Shown: positions 1,241 through 59,437 of the stretch, piece after piece | How the letters are laid out: every line of letters begins with the position of its first letter | Position numbering within the stretch: position 1 is the stretch's first letter | Notes under the pieces: model-generated | Seen by the model: only the letters and a program-made list of their open reading frames with translations | Database searches by the model: none | What the model was told of the DNA's origin: nothing | Origin: Castanea sativa | Taxonomy: Eukaryota; Streptophyta; Magnoliopsida; Fagales; Fagaceae | Direction of reading: 5' to 3' | Assembly (NCBI RefSeq): GCF_040712315.1 | Contig: NC_134023.1 | Location: forward strand, 31,427,088 to 31,491,087 | DNA: 64,000 nucleotides | Translations under genes and position numbers: made by a program

Positions 1241-1244
1241 CTCA

Positions 1245-2141: not shown

Positions 2142-2219
2142 TTTTACACAGCTGTTATCAGCTGGCTTCCATTTGATGTTGTGGGGTCTAGAAGTGTGCT
2201 TTCTTTGCTTAAAAACCTT

Positions 2220-4605: not shown

Positions 4606-4617
4606 ATCTCCCCCTTT
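4606..4617 (-). other. Polypurine tract
   Basis: On the minus strand AAAGGGGGAGAT lies directly before the TG start of the 3' LTR, the normal place and composition for the plus-strand DNA primer of an LTR retrotransposon. Confidence 0.85.
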
Positions 4618-7160: not shown

Positions 7161-7199
7161 CTTTTCAAAACAGTTAAAAGGGAAAAACACACACATGAA

Positions 7200-9190: not shown

Positions 9191-9197
9191 GAATAAA

Positions 9198-11100: not shown

Positions 11101-11156
11101 GACAAACAGGGGTCAATGGATCACACACAAAGATTAACTCTAATCAGAGTCTGCCC

Positions 11157-11168
11157 GCTCTGATACCA
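11157..11168 (-). other. Primer binding site (tRNA-Met initiator type)
   Basis: On the minus strand TGGTATCAGAGC lies 2 bases downstream of the 5' LTR end. This is the standard complement of the 3' end of initiator tRNA-Met used by plant Copia elements. Confidence 0.88.
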
Positions 11169-11170
11169 CT

Positions 11171-12192: not shown

Positions 12193-12380
12193 ATCTACTA
12201 ACTGGATGCAGCATCATAGCATTTCAATATTTCTTGAATAACATGGATATCCTCCAATTTAGCTCGGCAAAATAGTACACTATCATCGACAAAAAATAGA
12301 TGGGATATTTTTGGGCCATTCTTGCACAAAGAGAAAGCACCAATTCGGCCTAAAGAAACTGGTTGGTTGAGTAGTTGCTT
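12193..12380 (-). pseudogene. LINE reverse transcriptase fragment with FVDD motif
   Basis: A 65-codon frame contains 'PKISHLFFVDDSVLFCRA', the YADD-type catalytic motif of plant L1 reverse transcriptases in its F-V-D-D form, followed by 'IQEILKCYDAASS'. It continues on the other side of the LTR element at 3585. Upstream of about 12380 the LINE resemblance ends in a T-rich tract, so the LINE is 5'-truncated. Confidence 0.85.
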
Positions 12381-25571: not shown

Positions 25572-27148
25572 CACTACAAAAAACGCGGGCTATAGCCGCG
25601 TTTTTTTGGCCGCGTTTATAAAAAAACGCGGCTATAGTTGATCTATAGCTGCGTTTTTAAGAAACGCAGCTATAGACATGACCTATAGCCGCGTTTTTGG
25701 AAAACGCGGCTATAGGTCCCCCTCTAGCTGCATTTTCAAATGCAGCTCCAGCCGAATAATTTTTTTTTAAAGTGAGGCCTGGAGCTACGTTTGAAAACAC
25801 AGCTAGAGGGGGACCTAGAGCTGCGTTTTTAAAAACGCGGCTATAGGTCCTCCTCTGGCTGCATTCTGAAACGCAGCTCCAACCGAATAAATTTTTTTAA
25901 AAAGAGGGGCTTGGAGCTGCGCTTAGAAGAGCAACCATAGGGTGACCTATAGCCGCGTTTTAAAAACGCGACTATAGGTCCCCCTCAGCTGAATAAATTT
26001 TCTTAAAAGAAAGACCTGGAGTTTGCAGCCAGAGGGGGACCTATAGCCGCGTTTTCCAAAAACGCGGCTATAGGTCCTCCTCTGGCTGTGTTTCTAGAAA
26101 CACGGCTCAAAAAAAAAAAACTTAAACTTCCCACGTGCCCCCCCCCCTTTCCCACCTACATCCTCACCTACCCCCACTTTCAGTATAAGTTCTTCTCTTT
26201 TTTTTTTTCTTTTTTTCTTTTTTTTCTTTCTTCATTCTTCACTCAAAGCTTCAGGTTCTTCTCTCTTTCCTTCTTCTTCCTTTTTTTTTTTTTTTCCCAT
26301 TTCTTTCTTCCTTCTTCACTAAATCTTCAGGTTGTTTTTTTTTTTTCCTTTTTGTTTCTTCCTTCTTCACTAACTCTTCAGGTTCTTCTTCTTCTTTTTT
26401 TCCTTTTTCTTTCTTCCTTCCTTTTTCCAACGTAACTTTTTTTTTCTTTGTTTCTTTGGAGTTCCTGCATCTTTTTTCTTTCTTTCTTTTTTTGCTCCTT
26501 TCTTCTACAAGTCATGACATTTTTTTTGTGCTATTGTGTCCCTAATATTGTGCTTATGTTTAAATGGGTTTGTGTTCTTGAGCTTGTTCTTTTGTGTTTT
26601 TGAGTTTGTACTTGTGTTCCTTGAATGGATTTAGTGTTAGATTTGGGTTGGCTTTATTGAAGGAGAGGAGATTCATGGGTTTGTGTTCTTATATTTTGGA
26701 GCAAGTTGTGGTTGTATTGTTAGTATGTATGTTGTGTTTGATTTTGAATTTTTTGGGTGTGTTTGTATTGTGAGTATGTTGTGTTTGATTTTGAAATTTT
26801 TGGGTTTGAATTTTCTGGGTTTGCGTTTAATTTTGAATTTCTTGGGGGAAAAAAAACACCCAGAAATTTTTTTTTTTTTTTTTTAATAAAAAAAACCTAT
26901 AGCCGCGTTTTTGAAAAACGCGGCTATAGGTCTCAGACTATAGCCGTGGTTAAACAACGCGGCTTTAGGTCCAATCTTTAGCCACGGTTGTAAAAAAACG
27001 GCTACAAACCCACAGGGGCTATTGCTGCGCCGCTTAGGCCGGGTTTGTAAACGCGGCTCTAGAAAACGCGGCTATAGGCTATAGCCGCGTTTTTGGGGTC
27101 TATAGTCGTGTTTTTGAAACGCGGCTTTAGACCCCGTTTTTTGTAGTG
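25572..27148. mobile_element. Non-autonomous CACTA (En/Spm) element, 1,577 bp
   Basis: The perfect inverted ends CACTACAAAAAACG and CGTTTTTTGTAGTG are flanked by ATA on both sides (25569-25571, 27149-27151), a 3-bp duplication. Both subterminal zones are packed with copies of GCTATAGCCGCGTTTTT and its complement, often paired as hairpins (25590-26100 and 26895-27135), typical of CACTA transposase-binding regions. The interior (26100-26890) is a pyrimidine-rich then T/G-rich stretch without a transposase; ORFs there are low complexity. Confidence 0.92.
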
Positions 27149-30279: not shown

Positions 30280-33200
30280 CTGTTGTTGGACCTTGGGGGG
30301 TAGTGCCCCCCCCCCCCCCAGGAGTAAACACTTTTCAATATAGGAATTGGTATCTAATAAATTCAAAGATTCCGGCATAAATGAAAGAAAAAGGAAAAAA
30401 GCGATGAAGAAAAAAAATAGTATATATATAATATATTAGTTTTAGCAATTTGTTTCAATAAAATTACACTTTGCCCCATTTAACAATATTATTGATATTT
30501 TTAAAAGCTATGAAAAAAATATTAGCCTAACAACAAAAATTAAGCCCAAACAGCACTCCAAAACAAAATAAAAAATAAAAAATAAAAAAAATAAAGCCGA
30601 TTCTAACTAGATATCTAACTAGCCTAGGAGTAGGAAACACCCAACTTACCTCACACATATAATAAAAGGGAAAAAAGAAGGGGATATCTAAGCCATTAAA
30701 AAAAAAAAAAGGAAAACCTAACTTACGACTGAACACAGAGGAGTTCGACAGCGAGTGACACTGCAGTCTACAGGTCTACAGAAGCAAAGGTATCCCTCTC
30801 ATATTGAATCCTTGTTTGGTTAACTCAGATTTAATCATGTGTTGATACTTAACATTGTTGTGACTTGTAAAGAAAACTTAAAGAGAGCACAGAGCATGAG
30901 AGTAAGGACGTAGAGACTCAAAGACATAGAAATATAGAATAAACTAGAAGAAACTACAAACTAGAGAGAAAGAGTCAAAGAGAGAGGTAAAAATCAGACC
31001 CATCTTTGTCTTTCTCTCTTTAATATAGCCCATAATTTATTTTCTTTTATAAAAAAAAAAAATTGTCATCTCTTGTGACAAACACAACAAAACACGTCAA
31101 CTCCTATTGCCATAGCCCTGTGATGTTTATCATGTTTTGTGATTTATTTGTAGCTTTGTCTTTAGTGTTTTTTTATATTAGTTTAGTGTCTTTTAAAACA
31201 TTAAAGAAATTTTGTTTTGGGTAAATAATTAAAGAGATTATTTGCAACTTTAAAATTTATTGGCTAGTTGTTGAATGCTTGTGTGCATAGTGCTTGTCTA
31301 TTGTTTAATGATTGTAGATTATTAATTATATAATGACATAATAATTTCAAATTATATTTTATTTGTAGATTATGAAAAATTCAACTAACATATTTGATTT
31401 TTTCAAAAAAAAAAAAAAGCTTCAAATGATTTAGAAGCTAATACTAGTGGTGCAACATTGCCAACCACTAATGTTAAGGAAAATCCTGATGTCCCAATTG
31501 AGGAAAATCCTGATGAACCTATTGAGGAAAATCTTAATGTCCCTATTGAGGAAAATTCTCAAACAAAATTTCAAAAGGTTGATATGAGTTCGTTGCAATT
31601 AGAACTTGATCCTAGATTGCGTAGACAAATATATACTTATCATGTTGATCAACGAGATGAGATCTGGCGACGTTACATTAAGTTGGGTCCATACCAACCT
31701 CGTTTTAAAAAAATTTAAAAATTTTAGAAAGGTCAAAGCTTTCAAGGTTCTTGGTATGAAGATGATCACTTTAAGTCATGGCTTGAATATTCTCTTAAAA
31801 AAGATGCTATTTTTTGGCTGCCATGCTTTCTCATAAGCCAACTGGGCATGACGGACAAAATGCATTCACAGTTAACGGATTTAAGAGTTGGAAGAAAGTT
31901 AGAAATGGCGAAAGTTGTTCTTTTAGTCTTCATATGGGGAAAGATTTGAACTCCACTCATAGATTTGCCCATAAAGCATGTCAAGATTTGATGAACCAGT
32001 CTCAACACATAGACACAGTAGTAGGCAATTTTACTTCAGAACAAATTGCAAATAATCGACTAATATTGAAGGCTTCAATTGATGCTGTTCGACATCTTGC
32101 CTTGCAAGCTATTTCTTTTAGAGGTCAAGATGAAAGCTCTACTTTAACCAATCGGGGAAACTTTCTTATGACATTGGATTTGATGGTGGGCTATAATAAT
32201 AATGTTGTTGAAATAATGGCAAAAGCTCCAAAAAATGCCACCTACATATGACCTCAGATTCAAAAATAAATTCTTCATGTTATTTCAACCAAAGTGAAGA
32301 AGGAAATTAGGGAAGAAATTGGTGATGCAAAGTTTCTCATATTGGTTGATGAAGGTCGTGATGAGTCCATGAAAGAGCAAATGGCTGTGGATATGTTGAT
32401 ACAGATGGCTTTGTGCGAGAACAATTTTATGGGATTGTTCATGTTGTTGACACTGTGGCATTGACCCTTAAGAAGGATATACATTATTAATTTTTCAATC
32501 ATTGCTTAGATATCCAAAACATTCGGGGGCAAGGATATGATGGTGCAAGCAACATGCAAGGTGAGTGGAATGGAGTATAAGTTTTGATTTTGAATGATTG
32601 TCCATATGCTTACTACATTCATTGTTTTGCACATCGCTTACAATTGGCATTAGTAGGAGCATCAAAAGCAGTTGTCCCTCTTAATAGATTTTTCACTAAA
32701 TTGATTTTAGTTATCAATAATATCTGTGCTTCATGCAAACGTATTGAGCAATTAAAAATTGCTAGAGCTTCTAACATTGCATATTTGATTGATATTGAAG
32801 AGCTTGAGACTAGGAAAGGACTTAATCAGATGGTCACTTTACAACGACCTGGAGATACTCGTTAGGGTTCGCATTATAAATCGGTTTCTAACTTGATAAA
32901 GTTATTCAGTCCAACATGTGAAGTTCTACTGAAAATCAAGGATGAAGGAAATTCTTCACAAAAAGTAGAAGCAGAGTCCACTTATGAGGTATTAATTTCA
33001 TTTGAATTTGTCTTCATCTTGCATTTTGTTAATGAAACTATGGGGATCACTAATAAACTTTTTCAAGCTTTGCAAAACCAATCGCAAGACATTTTAAATG
33101 TTATGCATTTAGTTTCATCCACTAAAAAACTTATCCAACAATTTAGAGATGAGAAATGGAATGACTTATTAGCTACTGTGATATCATTTTGTAAGGAACG

Positions 33201-34002
33201 TGGTATAGATGTCCCTGATATGAATGCTTGTTATGTTGCAAGATTTGGTCAAGCTCGTCATCAACAAGAGGACTTTAGAAATGAGCATTATTATAAAGTA
33301 GATATTTTTAATGCAGGAATAGATTCTCAATTGCAAGAGCTAAATCATCTGTTTAGTGAGCACGCCATAGAGTTACTTACGCTTAGCACAGCTCTAAACC
33401 CTCGAGAGGCATATGAATCTTTTCGAGTCAGTGATATTTATTCATTGATAGATAATTTTTATCCAATAGACTGCACAGATGATGAAAAAAATGATTTGAA
33501 AAAGGAACTTAATCTTTATAAGTATGATGTAGTTCAGCATTCAGGGTTCAAGAATTTGAAAAATATTTCTGAATTATGCCAATGGATGGTGAGAACTAGA
33601 AAATCATAATACTATTTGCTTATTTATAGAGTGGTCAAGCTTGTGCTTATTCTTCTTGTTTCTACTACAACTATAGAGCGAGTATTTTCAGCTATGAATA
33701 TCATCAAAACTAACCTTCGCAACAAAATGGAAAATAAGTTTTTGTCAGACGCTATGATGTTATGCATTAAAAGGGACATTATTGTGACAATTAATACGGA
33801 TTCAATCATAGATGATTTTGAAGATTTAAAAAGACGACGAGTTCCATTTTCATAAATAATTGCATTGTAATATCTAAGAAACAATAATTTTGTGTATTTT
33901 TCTTTGTTGATGGTTTATTAAATGAATATTTATTTGGAGTTTCAAAATTTGTTTTTGTTTATACTTTTGTCCCCCTAACTCCAAGTCCTGGCTTCGTCTC
34001 TA
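30280..34002 (+). mobile_element. Decayed autonomous hAT transposon
   Basis: A transposase of the TTF-finger/DUF4371/hAT-dimerisation family, in five or more broken pieces, lies inside an LTR. The right end '..CCAAGTCCTGGCTTCGTCTCTA' (33981-34002) has a partly matching left end 'TGGACCTTGGGGGG' near 30286-30300. I could not see a clean 8-bp duplication. The LTR arms match on both sides of the element, which confirms that it is an insertion. Confidence 0.75.
31372..33855 (+). pseudogene. hAT transposase (DUF4371 and hAT dimerisation type), broken
   Basis: The start at 31372 gives 'MKNSTNIFDFFKKKK', then a frameshift in a poly(A) run. Next comes a fourfold imperfect octad 'ENPDVPIE' (about 31474-31555), then 'SWYEDDHFKSWLEYS' and 'DAIFWLPCFL' in shifted frames, 'RGQGYDGASNMQGEWNG' (near 32525-32575) and 'YYIHCFAHRLQLALV' (near 32612), both hallmarks of the DUF4371 transposase family. 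The C-terminal dimerisation domain 'VSTTTIERVFSAMNIIKT' lies near 33656-33710. Stops occur at about 31719, 32252, 32578, 32866 and 33607, plus frameshifts. It is probably inactive. Confidence 0.85.
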
Positions 34003-44890: not shown

Positions 44891-45251
44891 TTATTTATAC
44901 TTATTTATAAATGTATCATACGCATAGAGTTACAAGCTAATTTTTTATTAGGTTGGAGAACCACTGGACATTGATGACATAGTCCTCCAAGCACTCACTA
45001 ATTTCTCAAAGAGAAGAAAGAGAGGGAATTTAATTTTGATGGTGCAATAAATAAAATAGTTTAACCATAGAATTAATGAAAAAAAATCATTCTATAAAGC
45101 TATGAGCACAACAAAAATTCACAATAATTTTACCACGCCCAATTTATATATCATCTCACACACGAACCAATAAAATAAAATAAATTGCAATAGTGGTGGG
45201 CATAGGAATGAGGTGATAGACAAATTAAGTAGTGCTATGAAATTATTATGA
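44891..45251. other. AT-rich DNA, no gene seen
   Basis: There are no coding or repeat features I can name. It lies between the integrase fragment and the repeat array. Confidence 0.5.
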
Positions 45252-46267
45252 ACTAGCATGAAACTCCTGCAAACGCATGGATATATTTAAAATTAAACAC
45301 AATTTTTATCATAAAAATATAAATAATTAGTCAAATTATTTTTTATTAAAAGTAAACATAATTAGTCACATATTAAAACTATTATGTAAATTTAATACAA
45401 CGTATGATCATTTTTTTTCTAATTTTTAATAAGATGGAATGTGTTGTGAGTTTTATTGTGTGGTGATTTTAATCGAGTATATGTGATTGTTTTTTTTTTT
45501 TTTAATTATAATTCATTAATATTAGATTCTTCGTATTTTGCTCTCATTAACTCACTTGACACAAAAATTAAAAAATTAAAGTGGATAATTATGGTGTGGT
45601 CCCCACATAAATTTAGACACATGGTGCAAAATTGGATTATAATTTCAAATTCTAATTGAAATTTCTCTAAACTTTATCTATAAATATATACTAGCATATA
45701 ACTCCATGCAAACGCATGGATGTATTTAAAATTAAACAAAATTTTTATTATAAAAATATAAATAATTAGTCAAATTAATTTTTTTAAAAGCATGTAACAC
45801 ATGCATTTATGCATACATACAGATACATTTAAAATTAAACACAATTTCTATCATAAAATATAGATAATTAGTCAAATTATTATTTTTAAAGTAAACGTAA
45901 TTAGTTACATATTAAAATTCTTACCTAAATTTAATACTATTTATGATAATTTCTTTTCTAATTTTTAATAAGATAGAACATGCAGTGATCATTGTTATGT
46001 GGTGATTTTTATTTTATTTATTTTTTGAGAAACATGTGGTGATTTTTATTGAGTATATGTGATTGTTTTTTTTAAAATTTTTATAGTTCATTAATATTAG
46101 ATTCTTAGTTTTTTGTACTCATTAGACACAAAGATTAAAAACGCAAGTAGACACATGGCACAAGTTTAAGTGGATAATTATGGTGTAGTTCCCACATAAA
46201 TTTAGATACATGGCGCAAAATTGAATTATAATTTCAAATTATAAATCAATTTTCTCTAAACTTTACC

Positions 46268-46317
<50 letters not shown>

Positions 46318-46610
46318 TGACTTATAAATTTGATTTTTTTTTAGTTATATGATTATGTTTTTATGGTTTATTATATTGAACTCCTCATTTTCTACACTAA
46401 ATTAACTAATTTAGCACAAAAAATTATAATTAAAATTAGATGGGACACGTAGCGCAAAATTAAACTCTAATTGAAATTCAATTTTTATACTAAATTAACC
46501 CACTTGGCACAAAATTTTAAAATTTAGATTTGATATGATACATAGCATAAAATTATACTTTAATTGAACTCCAATTTGAAATTTAATTGGATTTTTTCTC
46601 TCCTTTACCT
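45252..46610. repeat. Array of related AT-rich repeat units
   Basis: A unit of about 438 bp starting ACTAGCAT and 'CAAACGCATGGATGTATTT' (45252) recurs at 45690, with a partial extra start at about 45796. 'TGGATAATTATGGTGT.GT.CCCACATAAATTTAGA' occurs near 45580 and 46172, and weaker copies of the tail ('GGCACAAAATT', 'CTTTACCTATTA') run to 46610. An (AT)n run lies at 46274-46316. The pararetrovirus locus starts right after a copy of 'CTTTACCTATTA', so it seems to have inserted within a unit. Confidence 0.7.
46274..46316. repeat. (AT)n microsatellite
   Basis: This is an AT run of about 21 units within the repeat array. Confidence 0.95.
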
Positions 46611-46831
46611 ATTACTAAAATACTATAGAAAATAACAACAAAATATGGAATAGAACATAGAACAAGATACAACAAACTGAAGGATATTATTAGATTGAAC
46701 AAGTTTTTTACAGGACTGGAAGACATAAACTGGAAAATATTACACAAGTGGTTAACTCTCTATTTCTCTCTAATTTTCTAACTCTCGAATTTTTTCAAGT
46801 CTCTTAAGTCTGCCGAACTATGGAAACAAGA

Positions 46832-46846
46832 GGCCTATTTATAGGC
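46832..46846 (-). promoter_or_regulatory. Pararetrovirus copy A promoter-like TATA box
   Basis: On the minus strand GCCTATAAATAGGCC lies downstream of the last coding remnants and about 220 bases before the copy's end. This is the expected place of the pregenomic RNA promoter. The matching box of copy B is at 57830-57843. Direction is leftward out of the locus. Confidence 0.65.
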
Positions 46847-47224
46847 AATATTTTACAAAAGACAAAAATATTTTACAGTCAGGAGATAAACTTGAAGATG
46901 TAAGTGCCGACTTTTTCTTGACAGTTGTCCAAAATGTGTGAGACTCCTGGAACCGGAGTGACATTTGTCTTCTGGATGTAAGGATTGTAGTGCAGAAAAT
47001 ATTCGCTTCCAGATTCATTGCTGACAAAAGATATAATGAAACTGAGAAAAAGAACGAAGCCATCATGCAATGCAATGCAATAGTTGGTAGCTTAAAAAAA
47101 GTGTGACGGCAATAGAGAAAGGAAAAAACAAAAGAGGAGCTTTGAAAAGTCAAAAGTGGCTCCTAGCAACTTTTTTTTTTGCATATATCTTTTATACATA
47201 TCTATCTTTTAGTCATCCCATCTG

Positions 47225-47967
47225 TCTCTACCTTAAAACCATTCTTCATCAATATCTGCTTCTGGGTCATGGTTATGGTAGTAAGGATCATCAAAGCCAA
47301 ATAAGGGATTAGACATTTCCCAATGGTCTTCATGTGGCCATTGCTGTCTGCAAACATCTAGGTCGGCTAGTACTATGTCTGGGAAGATTCCCTGATTGAG
47401 AGATTCTGTCATTGTGAGTGAATAGTGACAAGATATCCAAGACACGTCCATGTGTGTGTGAAAAGTACCATTAGCATTAGTTACCTAATGTATATCTGGA
47501 GGGTGAAAAATTCCTTCTGCGTGAACATTATTTTTGGAGTTTAGCTTAGCTACTATACATGCAGAAGTAATTTTGCGACCAAAACGGGGGTGATCTATTC
47601 TGAGATACTTAAACTATTGACCATCATCAGCATCATTTTTCAAAATTTCACGCCAGAATTTGTAAAAATACTTATTCTCTCGAGGAAAAATGTGCGAGTA
47701 GAATTCTGGTTCAAAATGGAGGCACAAGTAGTACTCATTGAGTAAGTACCACATGTAAAGGTAATGTACAACAGTCCAGTTTGATATCCAAAATGCAAAT
47801 GGAGTTTTCCATGGTTGCTTAATTTCTGGGTAAAGGGCAAGGAAATGGCGTTGGTGTTGTTTAAGGTAATCATGGAGGACTCGAATGATTCTTTTGGATC
47901 TGGCTTGAAGGGTTAGGGTCTTTATTTGGTCTTTTATTTCTGGGAGAAGTGTTTCTATCATGTTCAT
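47225..47967 (-). pseudogene. Pararetrovirus copy A, C-terminal ORF of unknown function
   Basis: After RNase H, frames from 47967 down to about 47225 contain 'ETLLPEIKDQIKTLTLQARS', 'WTVVHYLYMWYLLNEYYLC', 'GRKITSACIVAKLNSKNN' and an acidic, Tyr/His-rich end. Stops at about 47611 and 47490 and frame changes break it. Copy B carries the matching region (56993-57470) in better condition. I do not recognise a known domain; it could correspond to the small second ORF or the polyprotein end found in some endogenous pararetroviruses. Confidence 0.6.
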
Positions 47968-48047
47968 GATATCATTAGGGGCTGAAGTAGAAGGGCCAAA
48001 GGATGAGGATGGATCTGTTATTGGGTATACACATAAGGGTGGAGGAA

Positions 48048-49260
48048 TTATGCAGTATGAAGGACTAGAGGCTTTCTAGAAAGGTAATCAGTGATAAGGT
48101 TATATGTACCTTTGATGTGTCTAACTTGGAAGGACCATTGTGAAAACCAATTTGACCATTTGAGTAACTGAGGATGGGGGAGCATTTTTCTTTTGAATTG
48201 GAGCATTTTTGGAAAAGAAGACATGTCCATTTCGACAAGAAAATTGTGACCAAGGAGGTGAAATTGGAACTATTCAATGCCATGTTTGACTGCTAGGATT
48301 TCTTTGAAAGTAGAATGGTAATGGAGTTCTGAAGGCTTGAATGCACCACTTTTATATCCACAAATGTTTCTTTTGCTATCAATTTCTTCAAAGAGAGCTG
48401 CTGCTGCCCAATACTTATCACTTGCATCTGTCTGTAGAATTCTTTTGCCAGTTCCCGAAATCTGCAAGGGGGGAAGTTTTGCTGCTAATTTTTTCAATTG
48501 TTGAACTGCTTCTATATGAACTGAATTCCATTTTGGGGGAGATTTTTTCAACAATTTAGACAAACAATCCCTGTGTTTGGAGATTTTTGGGATGAAATCT
48601 GACATGTAGTTAACAATTCCAAGAAACTGTTGGATCTGTTTGGTGCTGGTGAGCGTATCTAGAAATTCACTAAGAGAGACTGCTATGTGAGGCTGCAGAG
48701 TATACTTTCCATCTGAAATGTTTACGCCCAAGAAGTTAATAGAAGATAATCCTATGACCATTTTCTTTTCTGAAAGTATTATCCCTTGAGCTTTTACTAA
48801 ATTGTAGAATTCAGTAAGCAATTGTTCATGGGATTCTGCATCTTTTGAGAATAGGAGGATGTCATCTACATAAATCAATGCATTTGACAACAGTAGTTGG
48901 AACAGCATTACCATTGCCTTTTGGAATTGAGATGAAGCATTTTTTAGGCCAAAAGGCATTACAGTCCATTGATAATGGTGGTCTGGGATGCAAAATGCTG
49001 TCTTGTATCTTTCTTCTGGATGGATTCCTAATTGCCAGAATCTTGCTTTGAGATCAAACTTTGAAAATACTTTGGCATTGGAGAGATGTTGGAAAATGGC
49101 ACTTTTATTTGGCAAAGGGAACTTGTCATCAGCAATGAAATGATTAAGATCTTGGTAATTGATTACCAATCTAAGCTTTCCTCGGACTTGTTCTGCATGC
49201 TTGTTAACATAGAAAGCTTCACACGCCCATGGAGAAGTTGTGGGTTCAATAAGGTTCTGG
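48048..49260 (-). pseudogene. Pararetrovirus copy A reverse transcriptase and RNase H
   Basis: One frame from about 49260 to 48048 is interrupted only by a TAG at 48270. The RT part has 'QVRGKLRLVINYQDLN', then 'KFDLKARFWQ' (family consensus has a small residue pair where Ala-Arg is seen here, a likely damaging change), 'VMPFGLKNASSQFQ' and the catalytic 'YVDD' at about 48861-48872. RNase H follows with 'LQTDASDKYWAA', a 'TFKEILA' Glu block, the TAG stop, 'EMDMSSF' and 'DYLSRKP'. Family order and motifs match Caulimoviridae polymerases. A frameshift separates it from the protease upstream. Inactive as it stands. Confidence 0.88.
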
Positions 49261-49968
49261 GTTAGCTAGGGACAAGTGTTTTGGGTTCATACCTCTATGA
49301 CTAGCTTTTATGGGATTAACATCTTCATTCTTTTTTAAGGAAAGGGTTATGAAAAAGGCTGGGTTTTTCCACAAAGGATTTGGATTTTTAAGGAGGAATT
49401 CAGAGTGAGTGGTTGCACAACATTCATTGATGATCTGGAATCTCAAGGAGTCAAAAGGTTTTATTGAGAACAAATGTGGTACCTGGGTCCAGGTGAGAAT
49501 GTGTTGTTTATGCAAAAGTCCTTTTGAGGACCATCTGAGGCTAGGTATCTGGTGAAGGAGGTCAAATTCTATGAGAAGGTCTCTGCCTGTGAGGGGGGAT
49601 CCAAGGACTTGGTGTCTAATGGTAAGGGTTGGAAAGATTCGAATGTGAATGGGCTTACTTTTCTGGGTAATTAGAAATATTTCTCCATTGGCTGCTTTGA
49701 ACATCTGATGATAAGGTAGCCAAAAGTATTCTGGTAAAATCTTAGGATGGAGGATTGTTGCTGCTGCTCTTGTGTCAAACAAGGCTATTACCGGGATGGG
49801 TCTGGAATAAGTATCAAGGACGATGTGAACTTGAGCTATTGGTATGGGGCCAGTTATTGGGGCTATAAGAGACTGAGATGTGTATATGGTTTGGATTTCT
49901 GGGTCTGAATCATCAGTATTGTTTGAATCTGACTCATCTTCTGAGGTTGAATAAGCCATGACTGCCAA
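49246..49968 (-). pseudogene. Pararetrovirus copy A aspartic protease region
   Basis: A 240-codon frame with 'IPVIALFDTRAAATILHP' corresponds to the retropepsin active site, where D-T-G-A/S is the consensus; here the Gly is Arg (DTRA), which should abolish activity. 'GSPLTGRDLLIEFDLL' downstream fits the flap-to-helix end of caulimovirid proteases. It is in frame with the coat-protein ORF upstream, separated by one TAA (49972-49974), and ends by a frameshift just before the RT motifs. Confidence 0.85.
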
Positions 49969-49971
49969 GGC

Positions 49972-50740
49972 TTAGGGAGAATAATCGTCGTCCAAGGAAA
50001 AGAGTGATTCAACATCTGAAAATGGGGTGTCATCTGCTTGAATTTGGGCTTGTTCCAAAAGCTTTACTGCTTTTTCTCTTTTTGGACAATTTTTTGCAAA
50101 ATGACCGGGCTTTCTGCATACAAAACAAACTTTTGAAGTTTTGCTTTTGAACTGCTTTCTTCTGAGAAACTTCCATTTCTTTTTTCTGAAAAACTTCTTC
50201 TTTGGATGAGAATGTTTCTTCTTCCAAGAGTACTTTTTGTAATGATCTCTTCTCTTGGTTGGACAAGCACAAGTTTTGTCATAACACTTAATCTGCAAAT
50301 CTTTCCTTTTACAATTGTCTTTAAGCTTGCTGTGGAGCTTGTCAATCTCTGAAAGAAACTTTCTTTGATTGCAGAGTTTTTCCAAGGCAATGAGGACATG
50401 CTGATAAATCTCTCCTAAAGAGGCATGCTGCAGTGTGATTTTTTGAAGATTCATCATGCGAAGAGTCTCATCACCTAGTGGTTCGGGGAATGAATTCAGG
50501 AAAGTGTGCTTGGAATTGACATCATCCATTCCATTAAAGGCGTAGTACCTGCTTGACATTCAGTCAAAATGTTTTTCCAAATCTTTTCTTTTAAAAGAGC
50601 AACATTTCATCAGTAAGAATTCATCTTTCGCTACTTCAGTGTAATGGGCTAATGAACGAAGGAATTCATTTTGGAGGATTGTGAAAAAATCCTCTAGAGT
50701 GTTACACTGGGCTGCCTGTCTTTGCCTGTATTCTCCAAGG
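49972..50740 (-). pseudogene. Pararetrovirus copy A coat protein, C-terminal part with zinc knuckle
   Basis: The frame 50559-49972 has 'SRYYAFNGMDDVNSKHTFL' and 'HASLGEIYQHVLIALEKLC', then a Lys/Arg-rich stretch and CFVCRKPGHFAKNCPKR, the CCHC knuckle typical of caulimovirid coat proteins, followed by an acidic end. Upstream (to about 50740) the same protein continues past a TGA ('LEDFFTILQNEFLRSL'). Nucleic-acid binding in the virion is the family role. Confidence 0.82.
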
Positions 50741-50748
50741 TTAATCCA

Positions 50749-51330
50749 CTATTGTCGCAATCTTCCTGTAAGTCTTGCGACAAACTTTGCAATAATCTGG
50801 GCAACTGTATTGTTTGGGGCTTGAAGTTTAGCTGTACACCATGAATACATATTGAAAATCTCCTCATGCCATTTTGAAGGAGGACTGTTATCAATGGTAA
50901 ACAAGTACTTTGAATCTGTGGTTGATGAGTAGGTTAATCTTGTGTGGTGATCAAGGATGAAAGGTGGTGTAGGAAATAATGGTAATGGTGGTGGTGGTGG
51001 AGGTTGTTTAGGGCGAAGGACTTCATCTTCCTCTTCTACTTTTAGATCTGTCATGAATACTTCATCTAAGTCAAGGCCAGACAAGTCTAGATCTGTGTGA
51101 TCAATGACTGGGAAAACAAAAGGTTATGTTGGTTCTTGAAGAGTTAAAGTTCTCAGAAATGATGAAATCGGGTTTGGAGGATCAGAATTTATGGCCAACA
51201 TGTTCAAATCTGGGGGTCTGGAAGAAGCACCAATAATTGGATCTTGTGGTTGGTATAATGGTTCTTTGTCTTTTTTGATGAAAGGAGGGTCATTTTGTGG
51301 TTTAGTTTGAGGGTCTGGCCTGGGTTGAGA
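50749..51330 (-). pseudogene. Pararetrovirus copy A coat protein, N-terminal acidic/Pro-rich part
   Basis: The frame 51084-50749 contains 'LDLDEVFMTDLKVEEEDE', a proline run, and 'PPSKWHEEIFNMYSWCTAKL', which in caulimovirids begins the structured coat-protein core. A TAG at about 51126 separates it from the upstream linker. Copy B's inverted segment carries an intact version of this part. Confidence 0.7.
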
Positions 51331-51336
51331 TTCTAG

Positions 51337-52350
51337 TTAGAATGGTGGTGTTGGGTTTGTTATGCTAGGAAAAATTCCACTTGGTTTAAAAGGATTTTGA
51401 GCAGGATGTGTCATGTTTAGTGGTTGGAGGTTCTGGTAAGGGGAAACTGGGGAGAATGGTGAGGGTACAGGTATGGACAGATCTTTATACAATGATTGAC
51501 GAGGTTGATAAGGTATGTAGACTTGCATAGGAAAAGCTTGGGTAGCTGCCTTTTGTGAGTTCTCTATAGACTGGAGTTGCATTAATAACTGCTTTCTTTC
51601 TTTTTCTTTTTGCCCAATGAGGGGAAAGGAAACAGACAAATCTTTTACTGTGGAGGCAATCGTTTCTAATTCTTGTTCAACTGACTGTATTTTTTTCTTC
51701 AAATCTTCAATGAGAGAATTTGAAGATGAGAAGGTATGAGTTACTACTTCAGTTATTTTTTGTTGATTGTCAAGAATCTTTGAAAGGACCTGGTTTTGTG
51801 CAATAGCATTTTCTGCCTGCCAATTGAGAGCTGCTTCAATTGAGGAGACTTGTTTTTTGGTTCCATCTGGATTGGTTCCAACAGGGTTTTTAATTTTCCA
51901 AACATGTTTAACATTGGCTTGGGGATGGTCAAAACTTTCAAGAAGAGGAAAATTTTGTGAATAGGAGGGTGATGCATGGTCAAACATATAACAAGGTAAA
52001 GTCTTTTGTGTGTGGGTTTGACGAGGAGGCTTAGGTTGACATTTTTGTACTTGGGGAAGGACATTCTGGTAATATGGAATTAGTGGTGGTTTCTGGTTTT
52101 GTTGGTTTTGATCATGACTTTCTTTGCATGGGGAAAGGGATGGAGGTTTTTGCTTTCTGGATCTGGGATAGAGGACATATTAGTCAAACTTTCCAGAAGG
52201 TTCTCCAAGGAAGTCAACTTCTGGATCTCCTGCTTTATATCTTTCTTTAAGAAGCTACTGTGAAGACTTTTTCTTTCGTCTTTTCTGCTTCTCTTCAACA
52301 AATTCTTCTTCTTGGCAATCTGTACAGTCACAAACGTCCCACCATATATG
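51337..52350 (-). pseudogene. Pararetrovirus copy A coiled-coil linker region
   Basis: The frame 51987-51337 holds 'SLIEDLKKKIQSVEQELETI' and following heptad-like Leu/Ile repeats (coiled coil), then 'QKEKERKQLLMQLQS' and a Pro/Gln-rich end; upstream pieces in another frame (52430-52080) are Lys-rich. Such a coiled coil between movement and coat proteins recalls the virion-associated protein position, but identity is inferred. Confidence 0.6.
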
Positions 52351-52392
52351 GCCAGTGGATGATTTTCCTTCATAGCAAGGTTTTCCATCTTC

Positions 52393-53383
52393 TCAAAATG
52401 CTTTGATCTGAAGACCTTCAAGACCTTCATATGAGACTGGTTGGATCATAGCCATAGGAAAGACTGTCACTTCTTCCTTTTCTAGTGTGGCTGCCATAAA
52501 TCTAACTTCAACGTCACTATTTTGGTTTCTGATGAAGAAAGGAGTGTTGGATTGGATTGGCTGGGCTGCCTGATGAAGAGTCTCATATTTTGTGATCCAT
52601 GATTCTGGAAAGAATTTTGTCATCTGCTCTTTGTTCAACTGTCTTGGAACAAATGTGCACATAGGCGTCATGCCCGGGTCAACTTGAATTAAAAGAGCAT
52701 CATTAGACTAGGTTATTTCTGGTATAGCTATATCAAAAGCATGATTTTGGAGTCTGTAGGCAAGCTGATAATGAAGTGTGGCTGCAAAAGTATCATGTAC
52801 TTGAGAAGCTCCTGTGATCTGAACTTGGACTTTAAGAGCATCACAAAGGTGAGGGTCTTTGAGAGACATGTTGAAATTGGGGAAAAGGGTGACAAAGACT
52901 GTTCCCGCATTGAGGGTGGTTTGGACAGTTCCTATAACTACATTATGGTATTCCAAAAATCTGGAATCAAGAAGAGAAATTCTAGAAGTTATAGGGAGTC
53001 CTTTTCTGCCATGAAAAGTGAGTGCGAGTCTTACTGCACCAAATTGGAGGTGAGTGTAACCTCGTTTTTTCCATGGAATTACAAACTCTCTAGGAAGGGC
53101 AAGAGTGATAAAACTTTCTTTTTCACTAGCTGGAATATTGAACTGATCAAACTTAGAAGCTTGGACATATTCTTTGACACTAGAAGGATGAGAAGGATCT
53201 AAAAACTTTTTTATGGATTTTTTGAAGGTATTTTGAGGTTTATCAAAGACAGTATAAGGATTTACAATAGGAAAATCAGTAATAGAAATTTTACTATTTT
53301 CAAGGACATGGGATATTTCATACAAGTAGTCTAGTCTATTTGCAGTGGATTTAAGAAGGGAAAGATCACACGTAGTTGTAATT
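52393..53383 (-). pseudogene. Pararetrovirus copy A movement protein
   Basis: The frame 53325-52708 (205 codons) has 'LYEISHVLE'-type start, 'KSIKKFLDPSHPSSVKEYVQ', 'LALPREFVIPWKKRGYTHL' and 'LDSRFLEYHNVVIGTVQTTL', resembling the 30K-superfamily movement proteins of Caulimoviridae, which modify plasmodesmata. A TAG at about 52708 ends it where copy B has a sense codon; the same frame then continues to 52393. The N-terminal portion is missing because the copy is cut at the junction with copy B. Confidence 0.82.
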
Positions 53384-53696
53384 GGTATCAGAGCCTTGCA
53401 ACTTGCTACACATAACTGCTAGTGCCTTGCAACCAGTTTCACTCTCCTTTGATTAGTATACTTTGATTATGGTCTTGATTAGTATGCTCTGTGATTTACA
53501 GTTGCCACAATAAGTGGATCCTCTGTATTTATCACATCAGAATACTGGATTTGATAATCAAGTAGAACACTAAGGGGTTGCTTTTAAAAGTGTCAAAGAA
53601 CCTATTTTCCTAAGTCATCTTGTGGATATGAGCATAGGAGTGGTGTTTTAGTCCTGTCAGACCTTAGGAAAACAGTTCTTCATTTTAGAAACTATC
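53383..53696 (+). other. Pararetrovirus copy B leader with tRNA-Met primer site
   Basis: TGGTATCAGAGC at 53383-53394 is the standard complement of the initiator tRNA-Met 3' end, used by Caulimoviridae to start minus-strand DNA synthesis. About 300 bases follow before the first ATG (53697), with short unproductive frames, as in a viral leader. The junction with copy A falls in or at this site; both sides share a short ATACCA-type match. Confidence 0.75.
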
Positions 53697-54420
53697 ATGG
53701 CTAGTTCATCATCCTCAGCAGTTACATCCTCAACAGTTACAGATACCATTACAGCTACGTGTGATCCTTCCCTTCATAAATCCACTGCAAATAGACTACA
53801 CTACTTGTATGAAATATCCCATGTCCCTGAAGATAATAAAATTCCTATTACTGATTTTCCTATTGTAAATCCTTATACTATCTTTGATAAACCTCAAAAT
53901 ACCTTCAAAAAATCCATAAAAAAGTTTTTAGGTCCTTCTCATCCTTCTAGTGTCAAAGAATATGTCCAAGCTTCTAAGTTTGATCAGTTCAACATTCCAG
54001 CTAGTGAAAAAGAAAATTTTATCACTCTTACCCTTCCCAAAGAGTTTGTAATTCCATGACAAAAACAAGGTTACACTCACCTCCATTTTGGTGCAGTAAG
54101 ACTCGCACTCACTTTTCATGGCAGAAAAGGACTCCCTATAACTTCTAGAATTACTCTTCTTGATTCCAGATTTTTGAAATACCATAATGCAGTTATAGGA
54201 ATTGTCCAAACCACCCTCAATGTGGGAACAGTCTTTGTCACCCTTTTCCCCAATTTCAACATGTCTCTCAAAGACCTTCACCTTTGTGATGCTCTTAAAG
54301 TCCAAGTTCAGATCACAAGAGCTTCTTAAGTACATGATACTTTTGCAGCCACACTTCATTATCAGCTTGCCTACAGACTCCAAAACCATGCTTTTGACAT
54401 AGCTATACCAGAAATAGCCC
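53697..54420 (+). pseudogene. Pararetrovirus copy B movement protein
   Basis: The start at 53697 gives a Ser/Thr-rich N terminus 'MASSSSSAVTSST', followed by the same movement-protein blocks as copy A. A TGA at 54057-54059 replaces a Trp codon of copy A's 'VIPWKK', and a later TAA near 54327 occurs within the conserved C-terminal part. It preserves the N terminus that copy A lacks. Inactive. Confidence 0.82.
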
Positions 54421-55398
54421 AGTTTAATGATGCTTTTTTAATTCAAGTCAACCTAGGCATGACGCCTATGTGCACATTTGTACCATGACAGTTGAACAAA
54501 GAGCAGATGACAAAACTCTTTCCAGAATCATAGATCACAAAATATGAGGCTCTTCATCAGGCAGCCTAGCCAATCCAGTCCAACACTCCTTTCTTCATCA
54601 GAAACCAAAATGGTGACGTTGAAGTTAGGTTTATGGCAGCCACACCAGAAAAGGAAGAAGTGACAGTCTTTCCTACAGCTATGATCCAACCAATCTCATA
54701 TGAAGGTCTTAAAGGTCTTCAAATCAAAGCATTTCGAGAAGATAGAAAACCTTGCTATGAAGGAAAATCATCCACTGGCCATATATGGTGGGATGTTTGT
54801 GACTGTGCAGAATGCCAAGAAGAAGAAGTATTTGAAGAGAAGCAGAAAAGACGAAAGAAAAAGTCTTCACAGCAGCTTCTTAAAGAAAGATATGAAGCAG
54901 AAGATCCAGAAGTTAACCTCCTTGAATAACCCTCTGGAAAGTTTGACTACTATGTCCTCTATCCCAGATCCAGAAAGCAAAAACCTCCATCCCTTTCCCC
55001 ATGCAAAGAAAGTCATGATCAAAACCAATAAAACCAGAAACCACCACTAATTCCATATTACCAGAAAGTCCTTCCCCAAGTACAAAAATGTCAACCCAAG
55101 CCTCCCAGTCAAACCCACACACAAAAGACCTTACCTTGTTATATGTTTGACCATGCATCACCCTCCTATTCACAAAATTTTCCTCCTCTTGAAAATTTTG
55201 ACCATCCACAAGCCAACGTTAAACATGTTTGGAAAATCAAAAACCCTGTTAGAACCAATCCAGATGGAACCAAAAAACAAGTCTCCTCAGCTGAAGCAGC
55301 TCTCAGTTGGCAGGCAGAAAATGCTGTTGCACAAAACCAGGTCCTTTCAAAGATTCTTGACAATCAACAAAAAATGACTGAAGCAGTAACTCATACCT
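54421..55398 (+). pseudogene. Pararetrovirus copy B linker region, cut by a rearrangement
   Basis: Frames 54633-54929 and 55143-55523 hold 'TPEKEEVTVFPTAMIQPISY', a Lys/Glu-rich basic stretch, 'SSTGHIWWDVCDCAECQEE' and 'VFDHASPSYSQNF'-like blocks matching copy A 52671-51740. At about 55398, within the codons for 'TEAVTHT', the copy stops and a minus-strand segment begins. Confidence 0.7.
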
Positions 55399-56990
55399 TG
55401 GCAACGAAAAAATCCTTTAGAGTGTTACACTGGGCTGCCTGTCTTTGCCTGTATTCTCCAAGGTTAATCCACCATTGTCGCAGTCTTCCTGTAAGTCTTG
55501 CGACAAACTTGGCAATAATCTAGGCAACTGTATTGTTTGGGGCTTGAAGTTCAGCTGTACACCATGAATACATATTGAAAATCTCTTCATGCCATTTTGA
55601 AGGAGGACTGTTATCAATGGTAAACAAGTGTTTTGAATCTGTGGTTGATGAGTAGGTTAATCTTGTGTGGTGATCAGGGATGAAAGGTGGTGTAGGAAAT
55701 ATTGGTGGTGGTGGTGGAGGTTGTTTAGGGTGGACATCATCTTCCTCTTCTACTTTTGGATCTGTCATGAATACTTCATCTAAGTCAAGGCCAGACAAGT
55801 TTAGATCTGTGTCATCAATGACTGGGAGAACAAAAGGTTCTGTTGGTTCTTGAAGAGTTAAAGTCCTCAAAAATGATGAAATCGGGTTTGGAGGATCAGA
55901 ATTTATGGCCAACATGTTCATATCTGGGGGTCTGGAAGAAGCACCAATAATTGGATCTGGTGGTTGATATAATGGTTCTTTGTCTTTTTTGATGAGAGGA
56001 GGGTCATTTTGTGGTTTAGTTTGAGGGTCTAGTTTGGGTTGAGATTCTAGTTGGAGTGGTGGTGTTGGGTTTGTTATGTTAGGAAAAATTCCACTTGGTT
56101 TAAAAGGAGTTTGAGCAGGATATGTCATGTTTAGTGGTTGGAGGTTCTGGTAGGGGGAAACTAGGGAGAATGGTGAAGGTACAGGTATGGACAGATCTTT
56201 ATACAATGATTGACGAGGTTGATAAGGCATGTAAACTTGCATAGGAAAAGCTTGGGTAGCTGCCTTTTGTGAGTTCTCCATAGACTGGAGTTGCATTAAC
56301 AACTGCTTTCTTTCTTTTTCTTTTTGCCCAATGAGGGGAAAGGAGACAGACAAATCTTTTACTGTGGAGGCAATCGTTTCCAATTCTTGTTCAACTGACT
56401 GTATTTTTTTCTTCAAATCTTCAATGAGAGAATTTGAACATGAGAAGGTATGAGTTACTACTTCAATAATTTTTTGTTGATTGTCAAGAATCTTTGAAAG
56501 GACCTGGTTTTGTGCAACAGCATTTTCTGCCTGCCAATTGAGAGCTGCTTCAACTGAGGAGACTTGTTTTTTGGTTCCATCTAGATTGGTTCCAACACGG
56601 TTTTTGATTTTCCAAACATGTTTAACGTTGGCTTGTGGATGGTCAAAATTTTCAAGAGGAGGAAAATTTTGTGAATAGGAGGGTGAAGCATGGTCAAACA
56701 TATAACAAGGTAAGGTCTTTTGTGTGTGGGTTTGACTGGGAAGCTTGGGTTGACATTTTTGTACTTGGGGAAGGACTTTCTGGTAATATGGAATTAGTGG
56801 TGGTTTCTGGTTTTGTTGGTTTTGATCATGACTTTCTTTGCATGGGGAAAGGGATGGAGTTTTTTGCTTTCTGGATCTGGGATAGAGGACATAGTAGTCA
56901 AACTTTTCAGAGGGTTTTCCAAGGAGGTTAACTTCTAGATCTCCTGCTTCATATCTTTCTTTAAGATGCTGCTGTGAAGACTTTTTCCTC
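55399..56990 (-). pseudogene. Inverted third pararetrovirus segment with a long open chimeric ORF
   Basis: Minus-strand sequence matching copy A 52270-50683 is inserted in copy B. It is open for 520 codons (57082-55520), the longest frame in the window. The first about 30 residues are read from the antisense of the adjoining C-terminal segment and so are not viral protein. The rest has the linker, coiled coil ('SLIEDLKKKIQSVEQELETI'), acidic/Pro-rich part and 'PPSKWHEEIFNMYSWCTAEL' of the coat-protein N-terminal half, ending at a stop before the core and zinc knuckle. Part of this region (equivalent to 52270-51740) also exists in plus orientation just left of it, so this is an added piece rather than a simple inversion. 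Confidence 0.75.
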
Positions 56991-57470
56991 GCGAGAATAA
57001 GTATTTTTACAAATTTTGGCGTGAAATTTTGAAAAATGATGCTTATGATGGTCAATGGTTCAAGTATCTCAGAATAGATCACCCCCGTTTTGGTCGCAAA
57101 ATTACTTCTGCATGTATAGTAGCTAAGCTAAACTCCAAAAATAATGTTCACGCAGAAGGAATTTTTCACCCTTCAGATATACATTGGGTAACTAATACTG
57201 ATGGTACTCTTCACACATACATGGACGTGTCTTGGATATCTTATCACTATTCACTCACAATGGCAGAATCTCTCAATTAGGGAATCTTCCCAGACATAGT
57301 ACTAGCTGACCTAGATGTTTGCAGACAGCAATGGCTACATGAAGACCATTGGGAAATGCCTAATCCCTTATTTGGCTTTGATGATCCTTACTACCACAAC
57401 CATGACTCAAATGCAGATATTGATGAAGAATGGTTTCAAGGTAGAGACAGATGGGATGACTAAAAGATAG
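56991..57470 (+). pseudogene. Pararetrovirus copy B C-terminal ORF remnant
   Basis: Plus-strand frame from about 57000 reads 'FYKFWREILKN'-like start, 'FGRKITSACIVAKLNSKNN', 'GTLHTYMDVSWISYHYSLT', a TAG at about 57280, then 'FPDIVLADLDVCRQQW', 'NPLFGFDDPYYHNHD' and an acidic end, with TAA at about 57462. It matches copy A 47690-47215 in reverse. Only one stop interrupts about 155 codons. Function unknown. Confidence 0.6.
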
Positions 57471-57829
57471 ATATGTATAAAAGATATATGCAAAAAAAAA
57501 AAAAAAAAAAGTTGCTAGGAGCCACTTTTGACTTTTCAAAGCTCCTCTTTTGTTTTTCCTTTCTCTATTGCCGTCATACTTTTTTTAAGCTACTAACTAT
57601 TGCATTGCATGATGGCTTCGTCCTTTTCCTCAGTTTCATTATATCTATTGTCCACAATGAATCTGGAAGCGAATATTTTTCGCACTACAATCCTTACATC
57701 CAGAAGACAAATGTCACTCCGGTTCCAGGACTCTCACACATTTTGGACAACTGTCAAGAAAAAGTCGGCACTTATATCTTCAAGTTTATCTCCTGACTGT
57801 AAAATATTTTTGTCTTTTTGTAAAATATT

Positions 57830-57843
57830 GCCTATAAATAGGC
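57830..57843 (+). promoter_or_regulatory. Pararetrovirus copy B promoter-like TATA box
   Basis: GCCTATAAATAGGCC lies 220-230 bases before the right end, mirroring the copy A box at 46832-46846. It points to the right, toward the PIAL-like gene, whose ATG is about 1.6 kb downstream on the same strand. Confidence 0.65.
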
Positions 57844-58066
57844 CTCTTGTTTCCATAGTTCGGCAGACTTGAGAGACTTGAAAAAAATTCGAGAGTTAGA
57901 AAATTAGAGAGAAATAGAGAGTTAGCCACTTGTGTAATATTTCCCAGTTTATGTCTTTCAATCCTGTAAAAAACTTGTTCAATCTAATAATATCCCACAG
58001 TTTGTTGTATCTTATTCTATGTTCTATTCCATATTTTGCTGTTATTTTCTATAGTATTTTAGTAAT

Positions 58067-59437
58067 ATATGCCATTAATAAGCTTCCATGATCTTCTTAC
58101 ACTCCTATTGTCCAGACAATTTGTCCGTCTTTTAGTTATTACTAATAGTTTGCGTGTCTTCGTCCTTATTCTCTTTCATTTTCCCGTAGCTTCCTTCTTA
58201 GTCTTTTAGTTCTTGCTAGTCTTTTAGCTCCTTCTTTGTCCTTTAGTTTAGTTTGCTCTTCGTCCTTTAGTTTGTTCGTCACTTTCTCCCATATATATAT
58301 ATATATAGGAACTTGGGGTAGTTTTGGTTGTGTAGATGAGAGATAGTGGGAAGTTTTATAGAATAAGGGGTAGTTTTATAAACATGGATAGGTTTTAATT
58401 TTTAATTTTTGTCAATTCACGATTTTAACCTCATTTTTATGTTTAACGAAAAAAATAATTATATTAAAGGTATTTTTAGAAATAAAAAAATAATAATTAA
58501 TTTTATGAATCTCTAACTTTTATAAAAATATATAGATATAATAATTAATTTTATAAATATATATATATAGATATATATATAAATTTTTGTAATGATCTCT
58601 AACTTTATTACTTTTAATATTTTAAATTTGAACTTCAAAGGGATTTGGTATTTTGTGTCGAATTTGCAATTACTTAGATTGTTCAACCACACAACTAATT
58701 TTAAATTGAAATCTCAAGTTTTCTCTTTGGATTTGGAAATTGTTAGGCACCAAAATCTGGCTCTTTAAATACTGAATTCCAACATGAGAAAGCTAGTAGC
58801 TCACTTGGCAATTTGAGTGCCACATGAACAAGTTGTGCCACGTAGAATTGAGCACTCTGAAAGAGATTCTTTTTCTTTGATATACTTATTAAGTTAACCA
58901 TTTGGATTACTCAGTATATGGTTAAGTAATTATGTTAGTACCATAATTTTGTCATTATTTATTCAAGTGAAGAGTTGTGAATGACAGAATTATAAAACCA
59001 TTATTATTAAGTACTCACTTATGAATAAGTTGTGACTTTAATTTTGATATTAGCACTTATTTTTTTGGATAGGGTATTAGCATTTTTGGTGGCGAAGACG
59101 TAGCAATTAGTTTAATCACCGAGTTGAACGTCACGCCCTTCTAAGCCAAGAAATAGCGCGTTCTCTTTGATTAATAATGAGCGTTTTTAAAACACTTGGC
59201 AAAATTCAATTTCACCCCTACGCTCTTCCTGTATTTACTGAACCTCACATTCCCCGAGTCCCGTAATTAAACCCGGAAACTAAACCATTTTAGTTAATCT
59301 CAAAACCCCGTAATGTAGTACCGTACCAAACAACAACGTTCCGTATTCCTAAATCTTAAGTAGTAAAACTCAACAACATAAAAACCTTAAGCTCCAAGAA
59401 ACGTACATAGATACACACACTTTAGACTCAGAAAATA
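58067..59437. other. Intergenic DNA upstream of the PIAL-like gene
   Basis: It contains a T-rich tract at 58125-58280 with several 'CGTCC(T)TTTAGTT' type repeats, a (TA)n run near 58290-58305 and AT-rich DNA near 58480-58600. The 59100-59437 part is less AT-rich and probably includes the promoter and 5' UTR of the PIAL-like gene; I cannot assign a TATA box. Confidence 0.45.
58125..58280. repeat. Degenerate (CGTC)CTTTTAGTT repeats
   Basis: 'GTC(C)TTTTAGTT' or 'GTCTTTTAGCTCC' variants occur about seven times with spacing of 15-35 bases. Confidence 0.6.

What the first reader, a model, noticed from the sequence alone, without database searches (positions are those of the whole stretch)
53383..58066. 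Two endogenous pararetrovirus copies joined head to head at the primer-binding site
Copy A (minus) and copy B (plus) meet at the tRNA-Met primer site (53383-53394); movement-protein and linker arms of about 1.6 kb (53383 down to about 51740, and about 53750 to 55398) are reverse complements separated by only about 370 bp of leader. Outer arms of about 1.07 kb (46611-47682 and 56993-58066) also pair. Transcription across the locus would yield a long hairpin, a natural source of small RNAs against related viruses or elements. Junction at exactly the site where minus-strand synthesis starts suggests it formed from replication intermediates.
Basis: partly seen in the sequence, partly recalled or inferred. 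Interest (0 to 1): 0.8.

Follow-up and report, generated by a model that had tools for sequence, protein, structure and literature searches.

The report
Rearranged plant virus fossil, inverted repeat
Pieces of a plant DNA virus were glued together back to back in a chromosome long ago; the arrangement is real and could form a hairpin RNA if transcribed, but similar arrangements are already known and others occur in the same genome.

Summary
The inverted repeat is real. Four caulimovirid segments in alternating orientation lie side by side: A (-, 53382 to 46610), B (+, 53383 to 55399), C (-, 56987 to 55406), D (+, 56982 to 58293). B starts at the tRNA-Met primer site, and D ends about 3 nt before where that site should lie. 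A does not: it breaks about 365 nt inside the virus unit, where TAAT plus a displaced GGTATC match the primer-site sequence. So the join looks like repair between a natural virus-DNA end and a broken end, not two copies meeting at their primer sites. The A/B arms are 1,652 bp, 94.7% identical. The segments are close kin, though one other copy (L015) is as close, and their differences show no codon bias, so most arose after integration. The A/B joint matched whole only once among 40 scored matches, but opposite-strand neighbours occur at 8 of 17 other places fetched (not a random sample), one with longer arms. Both predicted virus promoters point outward and A's arm shows no extra methylation-type mutation, so nothing here supports an active hairpin; RNA data were not available. 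Precedents: head-to-head copies in cotton, inverted-repeat siRNA loci in tomato. Ordinary in kind.

The parts
46610..53382 (-). Segment A: one long virus piece, unit positions about 365 to 7136, truncated at both ends, reading frames broken
53383..55399 (+). Segment B: starts at the primer-binding site, leader, start codon at 53697, movement protein and linker, unit positions 0 to about 2016
55400..55405 (.). 6-nt filler at the B/C joint that matches neither partner
55406..56987 (-). Segment C: unit positions about 1473 to 3063
56982..58293 (+). Segment D: unit positions about 6056 to 7362, ending about 3 nt before the expected primer site; 56982-56987 is a 6-nt microhomology shared with C
53379..53389 (.). 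A/B joint: TAAT microhomology (53379-53382), then the primer site; the A-side virus sequence has GGTATC displaced by one base
53383..53394 (+). tRNA-Met primer-binding site TGGTATCAGAGC (name of the tRNA recalled, and given in the finding)
51731..53382 (-). left arm of the inner inverted repeat
53748..55399 (+). right arm of the inner inverted repeat
52708..53418 (-). movement-protein reading frame of A (PF01107), stop to stop; its first 36 bases lie beyond A, antisense to B's leader
49972..50559 (-). reading frame of A with a CCHC zinc knuckle
48270..49265 (-). reading frame of A with reverse transcriptase and start of RNase H
46834..46844 (-). TATA-box motif of A, pointing away from the hairpin
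57832..57842 (+). TATA-box motif of D, pointing away from the hairpin
46610..46614 (.). host/A joint: TATTA microhomology with the host repeat
58292..58307 (.). (TA)n at the right edge
46273..46315 (.). (AT)n into which the sister unit of the interrupted host repeat continues, about 300 nt left of A

Best explanation
A decayed endogenous caulimovirid locus. During infection of the germ line, two or more related virus DNA molecules or fragments were joined in alternating orientation and captured at a TA-rich chromosome break. Shown: four segments on alternating strands; virus ends at the primer site for B and about 3 nt from it for D; 4-6 nt microhomology at three joints and a 6-nt filler at the fourth resolvable one; (TA)n at the right edge and, on the left, a host repeat whose sister unit runs into (AT)n; close kinship of the segments; neutral decay since. 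Inferred: the primer-site ends are open ends of reverse-transcribed virus DNA, the joining was microhomology-mediated or ordinary end joining, and it happened in one event. The inverted repeat is a by-product with no demonstrated function.
For: Segment map. Joint alignments: A/B TAAT, C/D TTTTTC, host/A TATTA, B/C 6-nt filler; 200,000 random joints within A give at least 4, 5, 6 nt in 2.1%, 0.65%, 0.20%. D matches the leader of the C8 copy (L009) to 58293, 3 nt before that copy's primer site. Trees: A with B 93/91 (16 rows), A with C 98/97 (11 rows), A with D 100/100 (4 rows only); copies within L011, L016/L017 and L012/L013 also pair (100/98, 100/99, 99/97). A/B differences by codon position 37, 24, 26 of 87, p 0.18. 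A/B 5.3%, A/C 4.5%, A/D 3.9%, B/C 3.3%, against 6.3% between LTRs of a copia element in the window. (TA)6 or longer within 500 nt of 7 of 24 outer ends (5 of 22 without the window's own two) against 4.6% of random 500-nt stretches of this window. Literature: TA bias and replication-linked ends in PMC4241990 and PMC526188 (passages, one section).
Against: TAAT alone is not a strong microhomology (2.1% by chance). The A/B pairing (93/91) is under the tree tool's own mark of 95/80, and by distance another copy, L015, is nearer to A and to B than they are to each other; L015 does not reach through the A/C region, so the A/C support lacks its closest rival. In the 543 bp shared by A, B and C, A differs from B and C by 27 and 29, these from each other by 18. 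The leader is repetitive: of six leader stretches compared with D, only that of L009 aligns to 58293; four others stop at 58243-58285, 9-12 nt before their own primer sites, and one (L010 plus) matches only on the opposite strand. The empty site could not be examined, so one event is inferred from the flanks.
Confidence: 0.8

Rival explanations
1. The head-to-head A/B part arose inside one replicating molecule: the 3' end of the minus strand at the primer site folded back on a look-alike (TGGTATC on the minus strand, about 359-365 nt into the unit) and reverse transcriptase copied the strand onto itself, giving a hairpin DNA that later integrated.
For: The A-side virus sequence at the joint carries TAATGGTATC against TAATTGGTATC at the primer site, the same but for one base. 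A and B pair in the tree (93/91).
Against: Predicts A and B to be the closest pair, but B and C are closer in the shared stretch and L015 is nearer to both. Predicts A to run to the end of the unit; it stops about 225 nt short. Needs a one-base bulge.
Confidence: 0.12
2. The copies integrated separately at the same place, or the locus was inverted and duplicated later by chromosome rearrangement.
For: Virus copies cluster in this genome; A differs somewhat more from B and C; L015 is as close to A and B as they are to each other.
Against: No host DNA lies between segments; the three inner joints are virus to virus with microhomology or a 6-nt filler; the two flanks do not match each other.
Confidence: 0.12
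3. The inverted repeat is a working natural hairpin gene giving 22-nt siRNA against the virus family, like the tomato inverted-repeat loci.
For: Strong fold, -2893 kcal/mol for 3,669 nt; 468 of 1,631 positions give perfectly paired 22-mers; 1,455 of 2,824 distinct arm 22-mers occur exactly in L011-L025 (arms taken 15 bp too long).
Against: TATA boxes point outward; arms 5.3% apart; no excess of methylation-context transitions in the arm over the body of A (CHH 0.123 against 0.135; among four other copies 0.114 against 0.121). B has no body to compare; its arm reads 0.136.
Confidence: 0.1
4. The joint is an assembly artefact.
For: Inverted repeats of high-copy families can be mis-joined; no long reads were available.
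Against: Segments differ by 3-6%, which long reads resolve; the joints have repair signatures; similar structures stand at other places of the genome.
Confidence: 0.03

Closest known systems
Cotton endogenous pararetroviral elements eCPRVE on chromosome A04 (PMC10458927; three passages seen, one of them from the abstract)
   Same: Two caulimovirid copies head to head on opposite strands at one locus of about 15 kb
   Different: The cotton copies are called full size and are 98.98% identical; here the arms are 94.7% identical and truncated, with two further segments
Tomato transcriptionally competent siRNA areas of Valli et al. (seen only through the review PMC10377300, section 16)
   Same: Rearranged endogenous caulimovirids in inverted-repeat form
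   Different: Tomato loci have 22-nt siRNA data; none could be had here, and the TATA boxes here point outward
[quoted passage not shown] passages and section 11)
   Same: Many virus ends near replication discontinuities, 93% of ends flanked by AT repeats
   Different: Related to a tungrovirus; kinship with the present virus not tested
Endogenous florendoviruses (PMC4241990; passages)
   Same: Frequent TA-repeat edges, a bias the authors link to double-strand-break repair
   Different: Genus of the present virus was not established
Infectious banana streak virus integrants (through PMC10377300, passages)
   Different: Those can release virus; the arms here hold in-frame stops

Membership tests
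Caulimoviridae, endogenous | Viral movement protein with reverse transcriptase and RNase H | tested here: met
   PF01107, PF00078, PF17919 and PF17917 in A
Caulimoviridae, endogenous | tRNA-Met primer-binding site in the leader | tested here: met
   53383-53394 and 12 distinct sites in other copies
Caulimoviridae, endogenous | No integrase | tested here: inconclusive
   none in nine of the ten frames of 150 aa or more in the locus; the tenth and shorter pieces not scanned
Caulimoviridae, endogenous | Aspartic protease | tested here: inconclusive
   no D-S/T-G motif in the three frames looked at, no Pfam protease match; other frames not looked at for the motif
Caulimoviridae, endogenous | Unit length 7.1-9.8 kbp (range from a passage of PMC10377300) | tested here: met
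Florendovirus or Petuvirus | Genus-level placement and ORF plan | not tested
   no named reference was held; reading frames are broken and were not mended
Tomato-type inverted-repeat siRNA locus | Rearranged endogenous caulimovirid with inverted repeat | tested here: met
Tomato-type inverted-repeat siRNA locus | Transcribed, 22-nt DCL2-dependent siRNA | not testable with these tools
   no RNA data; sequence clues against

The most novel reading that the evidence does not exclude
Head-to-head endogenous pararetroviruses form by self-priming: the minus-strand 3' end at the primer site folds back on primer-site look-alikes within the virus, so that the virus itself makes inverted dimers before integration and seeds natural hairpin loci.
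Probability: 0.1. Interest if true: 0.5.

Novelty: new member of a known kind. Interest (0 to 1): 0.2.

Why it matters
It shows joint by joint how virus DNA was captured: natural replication ends, microhomology, filler and a TA-rich site in one locus. Opposite-strand capture appears to be a repeated outcome in this genome, so the supply of hairpin-capable loci could be measured. No new mechanism or gene is shown.

Tried and rejected
Rejected: a 9-nt microhomology at the B/C joint (the overlap suggested it and my first notebook entry, says so; one search showed a chance extension and a 6-nt filler instead). Rejected: that A and D share a natural end at unit position 7136; D runs on as virus leader. 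Considered and dropped: a recurrent break near unit position 360 (window A, L027, L013); L013 begins further upstream, and close breaks are expected by chance among many (the expectation is my estimate). Doubted: a tRNA-Trp gene at 25661-25734, which lies in palindromic repeats. No caulimovirid was found in viral contigs with the RT fragment. Papers not held: PMC8389469, PMC7721327. Searches for print on such loci in oak relatives: Caulimoviridae + Quercus + endogenous gave three papers, none about such loci by title and start of abstract; endogenous caulimovirid / inverted repeat / Fagaceae, any two, gave 221, of which the 10 listed are chloroplast papers.

Not achieved: the B/C and C/D joints, both flanks and the shared 543-bp stretch were not searched in the whole genome, because the genome search was answered once only. 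L026-L030 were fetched after the trees and are not in them. Inverted repeats were computed for L011, L013, L014, L016, L017 and L019 only; for L026, L027 and L030 the map alone was used.

Full report
What is there. The window lies on contig C11 of a 716-Mb genome in 13 contigs. Between 46610 and 58293 lie four pieces of one caulimovirid kind, in alternating orientation: A minus, B plus, C minus, D plus. Unit positions are counted from the first base of the primer site at 53383 and are good to about one base. A covers about 365-7136, B 0-2016, C 1473-3063, D 6056-7362. The full unit is about 7.37 kb. Frames of A hold a movement protein, zinc knuckle, reverse transcriptase and RNase H. In the frame of B's start codon the arms hold 4 stops in A and 7 in B, so neither arm codes for an intact protein.

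The joints. The A/B joint has TAAT shared by the leader end of other copies (TAAT stands before the primer site in 12 of 12 distinct sites, CATAAT in 9 of them) and by the antisense of the movement-protein start in A; just beyond, GGTATC is also common to both with one base inserted. B therefore begins at the primer site or at most 4 nt before it. The B/C joint has a 6-nt filler, the C/D joint a 6-nt microhomology, the left host joint a 5-nt one. In 200,000 random joints within A, at least 4, 5 and 6 nt occur in 2.1%, 0.65% and 0.20%; the host joint is richer in AT, so for it the figure is too favourable. D matches the leader of a copy on C8 (L009) up to 3 nt before that copy's primer site and then meets (TA)n. 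The leader is repetitive, and the other five leader stretches compared do not confirm the exact base: four stop at 58243-58285 (9-12 nt before their own primer sites), one matches only on the opposite strand. On the left, the host repeat unit that A interrupts has a sister unit that continues into (AT)n. Across L011-L030 and the window, 7 of 24 outer ends examined have (TA)6 or longer within 500 nt (5 of 22 without the window), against 4.6% of random 500-nt stretches of this window.

Relatedness and age. With other copies from the genome, A and B pair at 93/91 (16 rows), A and C at 98/97 (11 rows), A and D at 100/100 (4 rows). The A/B pairing falls under the tool's mark of 95/80, and by path length L015 is nearer to A (0.051) and to B (0.056) than they are to each other (0.061). 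L015 is not in the A/C tree. On the 543 bp shared by all three, B and C pair at 89/90 and A stands beside them unresolved (15 rows). The copies of L011, of L016/L017 and of L012/L013 pair at 100/98, 100/99 and 99/97. A/B differences fall on codon positions 37, 24, 26 (87 in all, p 0.18), without the third-position excess expected of virus evolution, so most arose after integration. A/B 5.3%, A/C 4.5%, A/D 3.9%, B/C 3.3%; LTRs of a copia element in the same window differ by 6.3%. If the segments were identical at integration, the locus is of about the same age as that element or somewhat younger; no absolute date is claimed.

How special is it. A 201-bp probe over the A/B joint matched whole only here; the other 39 of 40 scored matches (337 candidates of the first look) cover about one half. 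But the arrangement as such is common: at 8 of 17 other places fetched (20 regions of 10 kb; three places seen through two regions each), virus segments lie on opposite strands (L011, L012/L013, L014/L015, L016/L017, L019, L026, L027, L030; not at L018, L020-L025, L028, L029). The 17 places were not a random sample: several were picked because two probe hits lay close together. Of the five fetched last, in list order, three have it. At five of the 17 (L011, L012/L013, L016/L017, L026, L030) opposite segments share unit positions, so hairpins are possible. L011 has arms in six gapped blocks over about 4.4 kb, longer than here; its plus copy also starts within about 10 nt of a primer site.

Hairpin and function. 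A transcript of 51731-55399 folds with 1,586 of 1,652 arm bases in register, -2893 kcal/mol; 468 of 1,631 positions give perfectly paired 22-mers. But the TATA boxes of A (46834-46844, minus) and D (57832-57842, plus) both point out of the locus, and B lacks upstream virus sequence. No promoter search of the flanks was made. Between A and B, transitions are concentrated at CG (7 of 22 sites) and CHG (20 of 109) over CHH (44 of 544), the mark of methylated DNA; the same order is seen in the other copies compared. The arm of A (two 700-base pieces) shows no excess over its body (up to four pieces): CG 0.357 and 0.357, CHG 0.236 and 0.187, CHH 0.123 and 0.135, against 0.330 and 0.351, 0.221 and 0.187, 0.114 and 0.121 among four other copies (pooled pairs, not independent); B's arm reads 0.393, 0.208, 0.136 and has no body to compare. 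This argues, not strongly, against long-lasting hairpin-directed methylation.

What is known. Head-to-head endogenous caulimovirids are described in cotton (PMC10458927, passages). Inverted-repeat endogenous caulimovirids that give 22-nt siRNA are described in tomato and soybean (from the review PMC10377300, section 16; the original papers were not read). Frequent multicopy rearrangement and TA-repeat edges are reviewed there too (section 12), and TA bias and replication-linked ends are reported in PMC4241990 and PMC526188 (passages and one section). The locus is a further example, with unusually readable joints.

Noticed in passing
window 3587-12196: A copia-type LTR retrotransposon on the minus strand: LTRs 3587-4609 and 11172-12196 (about 6.3% apart), primer site 11157-11168, gag fragment 10276-10806.
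   Followed up: partly
window 25647-25991: Palindromic repeats with GCCGCGTTTTTAAAAACGCGGC units; ARAGORN calls a tRNA-Trp here that is probably false.
   Followed up: partly
window 45242-46577: Diverged direct repeats of the host next to the virus insertion, one of whose units is interrupted by it.
   Followed up: partly
window 5134-6363, 31799-32251, 32866-33609: Transposon-like frames: Transposase_32 below cut-off (two frames), DUF4371, and a weak dUTPase_2 match below cut-off.
   Followed up: no
L011 1-9901: A second head-to-head pair, on C3, with longer arms than the window's; its plus copy also begins near a primer site.
   Followed up: partly
L027 4994-6535: Minus copy broken near unit position 358 beside two successive plus-strand leader copies of unit positions about 6570-7362.
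   Followed up: no
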